A stretch of 6,830 bases of DNA, taken from positions 1-6,830 of the forward strand of contig JAGDDC010000288.1 of assembly GCA_017958245.1 (NCBI GenBank), read 5' to 3'. Both the position numbers and the translations under genes were made by a program. The notes beneath the pieces are model-generated. The model ran no database searches. It had not been told where the DNA came from and worked only from the letters and a program-made list of their open reading frames with translations. How positions within the stretch are numbered: position 1 is the stretch's first letter; each line of letters begins with the position of its first letter. Positions 2,737-6,830 of this stretch are shown one piece after another. The DNA comes from Lachnospiraceae bacterium. GTDB lineage: Bacteria > Bacillota_A > Clostridia > Lachnospirales > Lachnospiraceae.

Positions 2737-4191
2737 ATGAGTACTTCAGCAAAATTGTCAGCGAGAGACAGAGTGTTCACCTTGCTTGACGACAACAGTT
2801 TTGTCGAGATCGGTGCTCTTGTGACAAAGAGAAGCACGGATTTCAACTTACAGGCAAAAGAAGCACCCTCTGACGGCGTCATCACCGGTTACGGACTCAT
2901 AAACGGAAGCCCTGTTTATGTGTACAGCCAGGATGTGACGGCTCTCTCGGGATCTATAGGTGAGATGCACGCGAAGAAGATCGTGAATCTCTATGATCTC
3001 GCTCTGAAGACAGGTGCTCCGGTTGTCGGACTGATCGATTGTGCAGGTCTTCGTCTCGAGGAGGCTACAGACGCTCTCGCAGGACTTGGAGACATATACT
3101 ACAGACAGTCTCTTGCATCGGGAGTCATCCCGCAGATCGCTGCAGTATTTGGAAAGTGCGGCGGCGGACTTGCAGTCTCCGCATCGATGTGTGACTTTGT
3201 TTTCGTGGAGAAAGAGAACGGCAAGGTCTTCATCAACACACCCGACGCAGTAGAGGGCAACAACGAGGGTAAGTGCGACACATCGTCCGCTTGCTTCAAG
3301 GCAGAGGCCGGAGTTGTTGACTTTGTGTGCGATGATGAAGTCGGCATGTTAAACGCCGTGAGAGATCTTGTATCAGTCCTTCCTTCCTGCAACGAGGACG
3401 ACGCTCCTCAGGCAGAGTGTGAGGACGACTTAAACCGTCTCGTTCCCGAGTTTGAGAGCGACCTCGACGATATAAGCGCAGGTATCCGCGATATCTCGGA
3501 CGGCGGACTCTTCATCGAGACCAAGGCTGATTTTGCAAAGCAGATGGTAACCGGTTTCATCAAGCTTGACGGCAACACGGTAGGAGTTGTCGCAAACCGC
3601 GAAGCGGTGAAGGATGAGGCAGGCAAGGTTACCGAGAAGTTTGCTCCCGTACTCACTGCCGCTTGCTGCCGTAAGGCAGAGAAGTTCATTTCGTTCTGTG
3701 ACGCATTTGACATCCCGGTACTTTCGATCGTGAACGTAACCGGCTACGGCAACTGCATGCGCAACGAGAAGAACATCGCGCCCATGGCTGCAAAGCTTAC
3801 GTTTACATATGCGAACGCCACAACACCCAAGGTTACGCTCATCACGAAGAAGGCTCTCGGAAGCGCTTACGTTTCGATGGGTTCGAAGAACCTCGGCGCA
3901 GACCTTGTGTTTGCTCTTGAGGGAGCTGAGGTCGGCATGATGGAAGACAAACTCGCAGCTCAGATCGTTTACGCTGACGAGCTCAAGGATGCAGCCGATC
4001 ACGCAAAGGCTCTCGAGGAGAAGGCAGCTCTCTATGCCGAGCAGAAGCTCAAGGCTTCATCGGCTGCAAACCGCGGTTATATCGACAACGTTATCGACCC
4101 GGCTGAGACACGTAAGAACCTTATTTACGCTTTTGAGATGCTCTACTTAAAGAGCGATGAGCGCCCGGTAAAGAAGCACGGTACAGTTTGA
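2737..4191 (+). CDS. Divergent biotin-dependent carboxyltransferase (MmdA / PCC-beta / 12S family)
   Basis: This 484-residue protein has the two crotonase-like halves of the acyl-CoA carboxyltransferase family (methylmalonyl-CoA decarboxylase alpha, propionyl-CoA carboxylase beta, transcarboxylase 12S). These enzymes move CO2 between a CoA thioester and carrier-bound biotin. The N half has SARDRVFTLLDDNSFVEIGAL, then DGVITGYG, GSIGEMHAKKIV (72-83) and ASGVIPQI. The C half has MVTGF (270-274), FCDAFDIPVL and SKNLGAD. The ERPVKKHGTV end resembles MmdA. It starts about 25-30 residues later than characterised relatives. Several family motifs are altered: SGGARIQE is DCAGLRLEE (101-109), CAGGA is CGGGL (141-145), VPGFLPG is VTGYGNC (334-340), KAYGGAY is KALGSAY (372-378), and VMGPxGA near 401 is not recognisable. 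About ten extra residues sit near 290-303. Twelve cysteines are present. It is first in the operon with OadG, a biotin carrier, OadB and OadA. The family is secure; the substrate (methylmalonyl-, malonyl-, glutaconyl-CoA or another) is not known. Confidence 0.88.
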   Translation: MSTSAKLSARDRVFTLLDDNSFVEIGALVTKRSTDFNLQAKEAPSDGVITGYGLINGSPVYVYSQDVTALSGSIGEMHAKKIVNLYDLALKTGAPVVGLIDCAGLRLEEATDALAGLGDIYYRQSLASGVIPQIAAVFGKCGGGLAVSASMCDFVFVEKENGKVFINTPDAVEGNNEGKCDTSSACFKAEAGVVDFVCDDEVGMLNAVRDLVSVLPSCNEDDAPQAECEDDLNRLVPEFESDLDDISAGIRDISDGGLFIETKADFAKQMVTGFIKLDGNTVGVVANREAVKDEAGKVTEKFAPVLTAACCRKAEKFISFCDAFDIPVLSIVNVTGYGNCMRNEKNIAPMAAKLTFTYANATTPKVTLITKKALGSAYVSMGSKNLGADLVFALEGAEVGMMEDKLAAQIVYADELKDAADHAKALEEKAALYAEQKLKASSAANRGYIDNVIDPAETRKNLIYAFEMLYLKSDERPVKKHGTV

Positions 4192-4209
4192 TAGGATAAG
4201 GAGACAGAC

Positions 4210-4581
4210 ATGGATATATTCAATTTAGTCTTTCTTGCCGCTGAGGAGACCGAATCGCTCGGCGATACGATGGCAAGAGCAGGTCTCAATACAGCGATGG
4301 GCATAGGTATCGTTTTCATGGCACTCGCTTTCATTTCTATCGTGATAGCTCTTGAAGGAAAGATATTTAAGTCGATCGACAAGAGAAAAGCGAAAAAGGC
4401 TGAACAGAAAGTCGAGACGAAGCCCGCTGAGAGCGAGCCTGTCACAGAGGTTGTAGACGAAAGTGATGATCTGGAGCTTGTGGCTGTCATAACTGCCGCG
4501 ATCTACGCTTTTTCCGCCGAGGCGGGAGAGGCTGTTCCCGCAGACGGACTTGTTGTAAGGAGCATCAGAAGGAGACAGTGA
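4210..4581 (+). CDS. oadG: Na+-translocating decarboxylase small membrane subunit, OadG/MmdD type
   Basis: This 123-residue protein has the OadG-family architecture. One membrane helix (about 28-50, GIGIVFMALAFISIVIALEG) follows a short N-terminus, then comes a basic segment (KIFKSIDKRKAKKAEQK), a charged Pro/Glu-rich linker (68-88), a conserved ELVAVITAAIYA patch (89-100), and a basic VVRSIRRRQ end. In oxaloacetate and methylmalonyl-CoA decarboxylases this subunit anchors the soluble carboxyltransferase to the membrane pump and stabilises the complex. It contains no histidine or cysteine, unlike the Zn-binding C-terminus described for Klebsiella OadG, so it is closer to MmdD in this respect. 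AAGGAG (4198-4203) lies 6 bases before the ATG, and the upstream gene ends 18 bases before. It is small and of low complexity, so the call leans on context as well as the end motif. Confidence 0.87.
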   Translation: MDIFNLVFLAAEETESLGDTMARAGLNTAMGIGIVFMALAFISIVIALEGKIFKSIDKRKAKKAEQKVETKPAESEPVTEVVDESDDLELVAVITAAIYAFSAEAGEAVPADGLVVRSIRRRQ

Positions 4582-6258: not shown

Positions 6259-6290
6259 TATTGCAATATCTCTTTAAGGAGGATTTTATA

Positions 6291-6830
6291 ATGTCTGAAA
6301 AGAAACCGGTTGGAATTACCGAGACTATACTTCGTGATGCTCACCAGTCGCTTATCGCTACCAGAATGCCCACCGAGCTCATGCTCCCCATCGTAGACAA
6401 GATGGATCAGGTTGGATATCATTCGGTAGAGTGCTGGGGCGGAGCAACATTTGACTCATGCCTTAGATTCCTCAAGGAAGATCCCTGGGAGAGACTTCGC
6501 AAGCTCCGTGCGGGCTTCAAGAAGACCAAGCTCCAGATGCTCTTCAGAGGTCAGAACATCTTAGGTTACAACCACTACGCTGACGACGTTGTTGAGTATT
6601 TCGCTCAGAAATCCGTTGCAAACGGTATCGATATCGTCAGGATCTTCGACTGCTTAAACGACCTCAGGAACCTTGAGACCGCTGTAAAGGCTACAAAGAA
6701 AGAGGGCGGACACGCTCAGATCGCTCTTTCCTACACACTCGGCGACGCTTATACACTTGAGTACTGGGAGAAGACAGCCCGTCAGATCGAAGAGCTCGGC
6801 GCCGATTCCATCTGCATCAAGGATATGGCC
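6291..6830 (+). CDS. oadA: Oxaloacetate decarboxylase alpha / pyruvate carboxylase B / 5S-type carboxyltransferase, 5' part
   Basis: The frame is open from ATG 6291, with AAGGAGG at 6276-6282 (8-base spacing), to the window end, giving 180 residues. The protein begins with a TIM-barrel carboxyltransferase domain of the DRE-TIM metallolyase superfamily, which moves CO2 between oxaloacetate/pyruvate and biotin. Visible motifs are TETILRDAHQSL with metal ligand D16, ECWGGATFD (47-55), the LFRGQN block, IVRIFDCLNDLRN, and SICIKDMA at the edge, whose K177 matches the lysine that is carbamylated as a metal ligand (K178 in Klebsiella OadA). The metal-binding histidines, the C-terminal conserved domain and any biotinyl domain lie beyond the window. 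Whether it ends in its own biotinyl domain decides whether it uses the separate carrier upstream, as a 5S or PycB-like subunit would. Confidence 0.95.
   Translation, partial: MSEKKPVGITETILRDAHQSLIATRMPTELMLPIVDKMDQVGYHSVECWGGATFDSCLRFLKEDPWERLRKLRAGFKKTKLQMLFRGQNILGYNHYADDVVEYFAQKSVANGIDIVRIFDCLNDLRNLETAVKATKKEGGHAQIALSYTLGDAYTLEYWEKTARQIEELGADSICIKDMA

What the first reader, a model, noticed from the sequence alone, without database searches (positions are those of the whole stretch)
2737..6830. Two different carboxyltransferases share one biotin carrier and one Na+ pump: a possible Na+-coupled transcarboxylase
Seen: one apparent operon encodes a 12S/MmdA-type carboxyltransferase, OadG, a free biotin carrier, OadB and an OadA/5S-type carboxyltransferase. 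Known: classical Na+ decarboxylases use one carboxyltransferase (OadA, or MmdA, or GcdA) with OadB. Propionibacterium transcarboxylase uses 12S, 5S and a 1.3S carrier with no pump. Inference: this set may work as a three-way hub in which carboxybiotin is loaded from a CoA ester or from oxaloacetate and discharged either to the other acceptor or through OadB with Na+ export. It could also run in reverse, using the Na+ gradient to carboxylate pyruvate or an acyl-CoA. Similar gene sets probably exist in Lachnospiraceae (memory only), but I know of no biochemical description.
Basis: partly seen in the sequence, partly recalled or inferred. Interest (0 to 1): 0.75.

Follow-up and report, generated by a model that had tools for sequence, protein, structure and literature searches.

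The report
Sodium-pump biotin carrier feeding lipid synthesis
A gut-bacterial sodium pump powered by oxaloacetate carries two carboxyl-transfer enzymes on one shared biotin protein, and in many relatives that protein appears to be the only one left that could also supply fatty-acid synthesis, because the usual ATP-driven enzyme for that step is gone.

Summary
Window 2737-6830 holds 12S-like carboxyltransferase - OadG - biotin carrier - OadB - OadA (cut). 76 of 87 loci read have all five in this order, 10 more are cut by sequence ends; 76 of 76 full-length OadA lack a biotinylation motif.

The methylmalonyl-CoA reading fails: the mutase is in 0 of 66 genomes, and the 12S-like protein is a divergent, constrained subfamily below the MmdA cut-off.

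Relatives gave something larger. In 150 family genomes, 33 of 126 with a FabD hit have no biotin carboxylase (confirmed). In 30 of 30 of their fatty-acid loci examined, accB and accC are absent without remnants; 18 keep intact accDA and 8 others have a PCC-type carboxyltransferase. In 28 of 30 such genomes the pump operon's carrier is the only biotin-type carrier found. The window's closest kin belong to this group.

Best reading: a one-carrier carboxybiotin hub, loaded from oxaloacetate (or CO2 by reversed pump), exporting Na+ and supplying malonyl-CoA. What the 12S-like enzyme itself carboxylates is open. New variant of known kinds; no biochemistry was done.

The parts
2587..2616 (+). terminator-like hairpin plus five T after recX, separating the operon from recA-recX
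   Evidence: -14.6 kcal/mol, z -1.63, 13 of 200 shuffles fold as well; weak
2653..2681 (+). possible promoter TTGCTT-17-TATAAT
   Evidence: read by eye; below the threshold of the scan; unproven
2737..4191 (+). 12S-like (PF01039) carboxyltransferase, 484 aa, divergent subfamily
   Evidence: dN/dS 0.026-0.097 in eight pairs of relatives
4210..4581 (+). OadG, gamma subunit, short form (123 aa)
   Evidence: TIGR01195 40.9 vs 36.05
4693..5064 (+). free biotin carrier protein, 123 aa, EAMKME (biotin Lys codon 4957-4959)
   Evidence: MKM motif in 87 of 87 carriers counted, two of them from classical pump loci L055 and L056
5113..6258 (+). OadB, Na+-translocating carboxybiotin decarboxylase, 381 aa
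   Evidence: TIGR01109 467 vs 190.6; GGADGP and NPLIGSAGVSAVPMAAR present
6291..6830 (+). OadA/PycB-type carboxyltransferase, first 180 codons (cut by window end)
   Evidence: full-length in relatives 464-519 aa without biotinylation motif; L001 copy PRK12331 756 vs 718 bits

Best explanation
The operon makes a one-carrier carboxybiotin hub. OadA moves the carboxyl group of oxaloacetate onto the free biotin carrier, giving pyruvate. The loaded carrier can be decarboxylated at OadB, which exports Na+, or it can hand its carboxyl group to an acyl-CoA through a CoA-type carboxyltransferase. In the part of the family that has lost biotin carboxylase and AccB, including the window's closest sequenced relatives, this carrier is as a rule the only one left. 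There it feeds malonyl-CoA synthesis through AccDA or a PCC-type carboxyltransferase encoded elsewhere, and perhaps through the operon's own 12S-like enzyme. Malonyl-CoA would then be paid for by oxaloacetate, or by the Na+ gradient if OadB runs backwards, instead of by ATP at a biotin carboxylase. Shown: gene content and order, one shared carrier, AccC/AccB loss, retained intact AccDA, no methylmalonyl-CoA mutase. Inferred: the carboxyl transfers, their direction, the use of this carrier by AccDA, and any activity of the 12S-like protein.
For: All five genes in order in 76 of 87 loci, 10 others cut by sequence ends, and one (G039, AccC-less, FabD+) a pumpless 12S-like-OadG-carrier-OadA set; OadA without biotin motif in 76 of 76. 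Census of 150 family genomes: Biotin_carb_C absent in 54, FabD hit in 126 (106 over cut-off); 33 are FabD+ without AccC, 30 of these over the FabD cut-off. In 81 of 93 AccC+ FabD+ genomes accC lies within 11 kb of fabD, so its absence from the same locus is telling. TIGR00514: 55 of 55 AccC-less genomes at most 70.4 bits, mostly on about 1070-aa frames (carbamoyl-phosphate-synthase-like by length), against 509-717 in 8 of 8 controls. tblastn of 30 of those 33 fab loci: accB 0, accC 0, accDA 18; 3 of 3 controls have all. AccDA spans the reference with the Cys4 zinc site in 18 of 18; accD and accA pass NCBIfam cut-offs in L025, and in the fused L034 protein accD and two of four accA-type models do. 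Sole biotin-type carrier is the operon's in 28 of 30; 8 of 8 controls also have AccB. The window nests among AccC-less operons (the 4-row and 6-row sets hold no AccC+ row; the 11-row set has one). Independent: Thermotoga maritima rings for PF01039, PF03977, PF02436, PF00364 and FabD but not PF02785 (controls; TIGR00514 rings in all 14 controls and does not discriminate at that threshold); in Caldicellulosiruptor bescii FapR controls both fab genes and a carboxyltransferase-BCCP-OadA unit (passages of PMC7071700); a C. thermocellum model assigns malonyl-CoA to a putative transcarboxylase of four genes (passage of PMC5414155).
Against: No direct test of carrier use, flux or direction. The operon also persists in AccC+ genomes and, with its 12S-like gene, in 16 of 21 FabD- AccC- genomes (14 of the 16 loci read), so malonyl-CoA supply cannot be its general role. 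The 12S-like protein has changed motifs. Stand-alone canonical 12S genes also occur in three AccC+ genomes (G023, G037, G141). G039 and G078 have a second carrier beside a second pump. Weak PF00364 hits (20-28 bits) in five of the 30 genomes were not inspected, except one that is GcvH-like. The window's own genome is not held, so its AccC status is inferred from kin. G006 has no PF01039 gene except the 12S-like one, which is either support for that enzyme or a gap.
Confidence: 0.64

Rival explanations
1. Reverse-driven hub: the Na+ gradient (for example from Rnf) drives OadB backwards to carboxylate the carrier with CO2; OadA then makes oxaloacetate from pyruvate and the CoA-type carboxyltransferases make malonyl-CoA. 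The operon would be a Na+-powered substitute for biotin carboxylase, pyruvate carboxylase included.
For: AccC-less genomes show no Biotin_carb_C domain at all, so no pyruvate carboxylase either. Reversal of such pumps with pyruvate and acetyl-CoA as acceptors is the title of Dimroth and Hilpert 1984, seen only in the reference list of PMC7274780.
Against: A PEPCK-family hit, a possible oxaloacetate source, is found in 30 of 34 AccC-less genomes searched, some only as fragments or weak matches. G039 is AccC-less and its operon has no OadB, though it has other OadB genes. Direction cannot be read from sequence; Rnf was not searched.
Confidence: 0.3
2. Plain oxaloacetate decarboxylase Na+ pump. 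The 12S-like protein is a structural or regulatory subunit (or acyl-CoA sensor) without transfer activity, and AccC-less genomes live on imported fatty acids.
For: 12S-like motifs are changed in a consistent way. Two genomes have OadG-carrier-OadB-OadA and one carrier-OadB-OadA with no carboxyltransferase of the 12S kind (G036, G045, G059).
Against: N-terminal oxyanion glycines, Arg110 and Glu113 are kept in 83-85 of 85 under strong purifying selection. AccC-less genomes keep fab loci and intact AccDA.
Confidence: 0.25
3. Methylmalonyl-CoA decarboxylase or Propionibacterium-type methylmalonyl-CoA:pyruvate transcarboxylase in a succinate-propionate pathway.
For: Best-scoring NCBIfam model of the 12S-like protein is mmdA.
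Against: 445 bits against a cut-off of 998.8; MM_CoA_mutase absent from 66 of 66 genomes, found in 8 of 14 controls.
Confidence: 0.04
4. Missing accB/accC is an assembly or binning artefact.
For: Completeness is not given for these genomes; many are small or fragmented.
Against: accB and accC are missing from fab loci that are present, 30 of 30 with no remnant; the AccC label clusters on the operon tree; two searches agree.
Confidence: 0.07

Closest known systems
Na+-translocating oxaloacetate decarboxylase (OadABG)
   Same: OadA, OadB, OadG homologues; OadA of the kin passes PRK12331, OadB TIGR01109
   Different: biotin on a free carrier and not on OadA; extra 12S-like carboxyltransferase in the operon
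Methylmalonyl-CoA decarboxylase (MmdABCD) of Veillonella
   Same: PF01039 carboxyltransferase + free carrier + small gamma/delta-type subunit + OadB-type pump (subunit make-up recalled)
   Different: 12S-like far below the MmdA cut-off; OadA also present; no mutase in 66 of 66 genomes
Propionibacterium transcarboxylase (12S, 5S, 1.3S)
   Same: a CoA-type and a pyruvate-type carboxyltransferase on one small biotin carrier (recalled)
   Different: has a Na+ pump; OadA of kin scores 537 vs 827 for the 5S model; no propionate pathway
Carboxyltransferase-BCCP-OadA unit of Caldicellulosiruptor bescii and putative transcarboxylase of Clostridium thermocellum
   Same: sets assigned to malonyl-CoA formation (PMC7071700, PMC5414155 passages); G039 has the same pumpless layout
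   Different: the four genes listed for C. bescii name no OadB; no AccDA is mentioned in the passages seen, whereas Lachnospiraceae often keep AccDA
Bacterial acetyl-CoA carboxylase AccABCD
   Same: AccDA retained in 18 of 30 fab loci of AccC-less genomes
   Different: AccB and AccC absent

Membership tests
Na+-translocating oxaloacetate decarboxylase | OadB-type membrane subunit with the conserved residues | tested here: met
   TIGR01109 467 vs 190.6; GGADGP in 81 of 81 and N-x3-G-x4-S-x6-R in 81 of 81 operon OadB over 300 aa; residue roles recalled
Na+-translocating oxaloacetate decarboxylase | OadA carboxyltransferase | tested here: met
   window fragment 320 bits, cut by the window end; kin copy L001 PRK12331 756 vs 718, though TIGR01108 oadA 659 vs 756.5 is not met (that model is 582 positions long and the match ends at 444); RDxHQS, KDM and HxH motifs in 75 of 76 each
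Na+-translocating oxaloacetate decarboxylase | OadG gamma subunit | tested here: met
   TIGR01195 40.9 vs 36.05
Na+-translocating oxaloacetate decarboxylase | biotinyl domain on OadA (classical enterobacterial form) | tested here: not met
   motif in 0 of 76 full-length relatives; the carrier is a separate gene
Na+-translocating oxaloacetate decarboxylase | Na+ transport coupled to oxaloacetate decarboxylation | not testable with these tools
   needs vesicles
Methylmalonyl-CoA decarboxylase | MmdA carboxyltransferase | tested here: not met
   TIGR01117 445 vs 998.8
Methylmalonyl-CoA decarboxylase | methylmalonyl-CoA pathway present | tested here: not met
   PF01642 in 0 of 66 relatives' genomes
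Propionibacterium transcarboxylase | 12S + 5S + 1.3S acting without a pump | tested here: not met
   OadB present; 5S model 537 vs 827 for the L001 OadA
Acetyl-CoA carboxylase | biotin carboxylase subunit | tested here: not met
   none in the operon; 54 of 150 family genomes have no Biotin_carb_C
Oxaloacetate:acetyl-CoA transcarboxylase (works-like) | carboxyl transfer from oxaloacetate to acetyl-CoA | not testable with these tools
   inferred from gene content only

The most novel reading that the evidence does not exclude
About a quarter of the Lachnospiraceae with FabD have rebuilt acetyl-CoA carboxylase: they discarded biotin carboxylase and AccB and plugged AccDA (or a PCC-type carboxyltransferase) into the biotin carrier of a Na+ pump. 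One carboxybiotin pool then switches between exporting Na+ and making malonyl-CoA, paid for by oxaloacetate or by the Na+ gradient and not by ATP at a biotin carboxylase. The operon's 12S-like enzyme would be a further outlet of the same pool.
Probability: 0.6. Interest if true: 0.85.

Novelty: new variant of a known kind. Interest (0 to 1): 0.7.

Why it matters
Acetyl-CoA carboxylase is treated as the ATP-dependent entry to bacterial fatty acids. A repeated loss of its ATP-using half in a major gut and rumen family, with the carboxyl-transferring half retained, would couple membrane lipid synthesis directly to the PEP-oxaloacetate-pyruvate node and to the Na+ gradient. [quoted passage not shown] it does not say which subunits). 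It predicts that inhibitors of biotin carboxylase miss these bacteria, and that one streptavidin band should be seen.

Tried and rejected
Rejected: methylmalonyl-CoA role (mutase in 0 of 66). Rejected: the 12S-like protein as a decaying pseudogene (dN/dS 0.026-0.097 in 8 pairs, some with saturated dS). Rejected as the general role: malonyl-CoA supply by the 12S-like enzyme, because the operon also sits in AccC+ genomes and in genomes with no FabD. Rejected: a biotin domain on OadA. G128's second strong Biotin_lipoyl hit is a lipoyl-type domain beside lipoate genes (by eye) and G070's is a 557-aa E2-like protein (by eye); G039 and G078 do have a second carrier beside a second pump.

Led nowhere: the promoter/terminator scan gave no more than shuffles; the careful tree never finished, so tree counts are from the quick search. 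Structure prediction was not run because sequence similarity already fixes the fold. The weaker PF01039 hits of G046, G104 and G134 were not listed, so their acyl-CoA carboxyltransferase is unresolved; fab loci of G026, G046 and G066 were not fetched. Literature: 10 of 10 searches used; I saw no paper in their listings on AccC-less Lachnospiraceae or on this five-gene set, but only open-licence PMC is held, listings were capped, most papers listed were not opened, and the nine opened were seen as passages only (PMC5414155, PMC3039559, PMC4478896, PMC8473912, PMC7274780, PMC3561251, PMC8100219, PMC3199775, PMC7071700).
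Full report
What is there. The window is ftsY(cut)-recA-recX followed by 12S-like (2737-4191), OadG (4210-4581), a free biotin carrier (4693-5064), OadB (5113-6258) and the first 180 codons of OadA (6291-6830) (ftsY named by eye). The finding's coordinates and gene names are right. 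The one scan of the genome collection gave 11 loci, eight titled Lachnospiraceae bacterium, one Mediterraneibacter, one Schaedlerella and one uncultured Clostridia, 55-65% identical in the 12S-like protein. Seven of them reach a full OadA of 468-475 aa.

Conservation. I fetched more operon loci from genomes of the family of G001, the genome of the Lachnospiraceae locus L001. Of 87 loci, the window included and two classical pump loci (L055, L056) left out, 76 have 12S-like-OadG-carrier-OadB-OadA in this order; 10 are cut by a sequence end; one, G039, is uncut and has 12S-like-OadG-carrier-OadA with no OadB (tblastn none). Three further genomes, fetched because they lack PF01039, have the pump genes without 12S-like (G036, G045, G059). 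Full-length OadA: 76, none with a biotinylation motif; carriers: MKM motif in 87 of 87 counted. Of 12 genomes without an OadB hit, G035 and G132 carry the 12S-like gene at a contig end, G152 has a partial PF01039 hit that was not inspected, and the other 9 show no PF01039 hit of 12S-like strength.

The 12S-like protein. It matches PCC beta chains (best PDB hit 1vrg, E 6e-105) but misses the MmdA cut-off. Against 13 canonical 12S-type sequences, 85 operon copies keep the N-terminal oxyanion glycines (85 and 83 of 85), Arg110 and Glu113 (85 of 85 each), but have Ser or Thr in 83 of 85 where the canonical C-terminal hole has Gly (window Ser380), and have lost the DxPGFxPG and RHG motifs (numbering from the 488-aa ORF; the role of these residues is recalled from the 12S and PccB structures). 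dN/dS is 0.026-0.097 in eight pairs. It is a constrained subfamily and not a relic. Its substrate is unknown.

The unexpected part. A C. thermocellum model assigns malonyl-CoA to a putative transcarboxylase because a standard acetyl-CoA carboxylase is missing (passage of PMC5414155). I therefore looked for acetyl-CoA carboxylase in the relatives. In 150 genomes drawn from the family of G001, Biotin_carb_C is present in 96, OAD_beta in 138 (135 over cut-off), Carboxyl_trans in 146, FabD in 126 (106 over cut-off). Crossing the lists: 93 FabD+ AccC+, 33 FabD+ AccC- (30 over the FabD cut-off; not G029, G066, G121), 3 FabD- AccC+, 21 FabD- AccC-. In 81 of the 93, accC lies within 11 kb of fabD.

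AccC loss is real. I fetched the fab loci of 30 of the 33 (not G026, G046, G066). tblastn finds no accB and no accC in 30 of 30, not even remnants at E 1e-3; accDA in 18 of 30; all in 3 of 3 controls. AccDA covers the reference and has its zinc cysteines in 18 of 18. One locus, L025 of G076, reads (acpP)-accD-accA-fabH-fabK-fabD-fabG-fabF-fabZ with accD 339 vs 317 and accA 384 vs 319 bits (acpP named by eye, no family hit at the threshold used; FabK 433 vs 453, below cut-off). Of the other 12 loci, 8 genomes have a canonical 12S-type enzyme, in G039 beside fabD (G001, G039, G051, G060, G070, G086, G114, G137), G103 has a fragment of one by score, and G006, G104, G134 are unresolved. G058 has both, and G066, whose fab locus was not fetched, has a canonical one. 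Canonical 12S genes without OadB beside them also occur in AccC+ G023, G037 and G141.

One carrier. With the window's carrier as tblastn query and with PF00364, 8 of 8 AccC+ controls have the operon carrier and an AccB. Of the 30 FabD+ AccC- genomes in which the operon carrier is found, 26 have one PF00364 domain over 50 bits; in G128 and G070 the extra ones are lipoyl-type, so 28 of 30 have one biotin-type carrier; G039 and G078 have a second beside a second pump. Hits of 20-28 bits in G085, G086, G114, G128 and G148 were not followed, apart from the GcvH-like one of G128. In G012 and G029 no operon carrier was found but operon-type OadA lies cut at a contig start; G026 (1.2 Mb) shows no OadB, OadA or carrier. 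So AccDA, or its replacement, has as a rule no visible source of carboxybiotin but the pump operon.

History and the window. On a quick tree of 82 operons (concatenated 12S-like, OadB, OadA) the AccC label needs 12 changes among rows taken as FabD+, at least 9 forced by well-supported branches (four of these rows were not FabD-tested). The window groups with G001, G002 and G006 (support 100), all AccC-less; the 11-row set around them holds one AccC+ row. G001 has a canonical 12S besides the operon copy; G006 has only the operon copy. The window's own AccC status cannot be read.

Other tests. Methylmalonyl-CoA mutase: 0 of 66 genomes, 8 of 14 controls. PEPCK family: 30 of 34 AccC-less genomes and 8 of 8 AccC+ controls, many as weak matches on 555-626-aa frames or contig-edge fragments. 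Thermotoga maritima, among the controls, rings for FabD, OAD_beta, PYC_OADA and Carboxyl_trans but not for Biotin_carb_C, in line with the table of PMC3199775 where Thermotogales lack the ACC-type biotin carboxylase. In C. bescii deletion of FapR raises both fab genes and a unit of carboxyltransferase, hypothetical protein, BCCP and oxaloacetate decarboxylase (passages of PMC7071700). In C. thermocellum membranes the carboxyltransferase Cthe_0699 runs at about 220 kDa, and also above 880 kDa, with no other ACC subunit detected (passages of PMC3039559).

Mechanism. Shown by sequence: shared carrier, pump, two carboxyltransferases, loss of AccB/AccC with retained AccDA. Inferred: OadA loads the carrier from oxaloacetate; OadB unloads it with Na+ export; AccDA or a 12S-type enzyme unloads it onto acetyl-CoA. 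The pumpless G039 set shows that carrier, OadA and 12S-like can be kept together without OadB in an AccC-less genome. Reversal of such pumps onto pyruvate and acetyl-CoA is the title of a 1984 paper seen only in a reference list.

Noticed in passing
L138 8673-9422 and the operon loci: OadG is 236-350 aa in most of the loci against 114-145 aa in the window's clade and some others; the long form in L138 starts with a lipobox-like signal (by eye) and matches OadG only at its C-terminal end.
   Followed up: partly
L107 5028-9238 (G039): Pumpless 12S-like-OadG-carrier-OadA set in an AccC-less genome, like the gene set listed for C. bescii.
   Followed up: partly
150-genome census: 21 of 150 genomes lack both FabD and AccC, 3 lack FabD alone: possible fatty-acid auxotrophs, 16 of the 21 still with the operon's 12S-like gene.
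   Followed up: no
L133, L134 (G036, G045): A more distant OadG-carrier-OadB-OadA set (OadA 59-60% identical) with no carboxyltransferase of the 12S kind; the carrier of G045 was placed.
   Followed up: partly
L140 (G039), L141 (G078): Second pump clusters: one beside malonate-decarboxylase-like genes, one beside a glutaconyl-CoA-decarboxylase-like gene; names by resemblance only.
   Followed up: no
L045 (G023) and L038 (G039): A canonical 12S-type carboxyltransferase lies directly beside fabD; G023 also has an atypical AccC (509 bits, below the cut-off) and an 87-aa carrier frame near it.
   Followed up: partly
L054 9663-17001 (G110): AccDA sits in a 2446-aa open frame that runs to the end of the fetched stretch.
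   Followed up: no
window 4582-4692: 111-base gap between OadG and the carrier holds a TGCCGC...GCGGCA inverted repeat without a T run (by eye).
   Followed up: no
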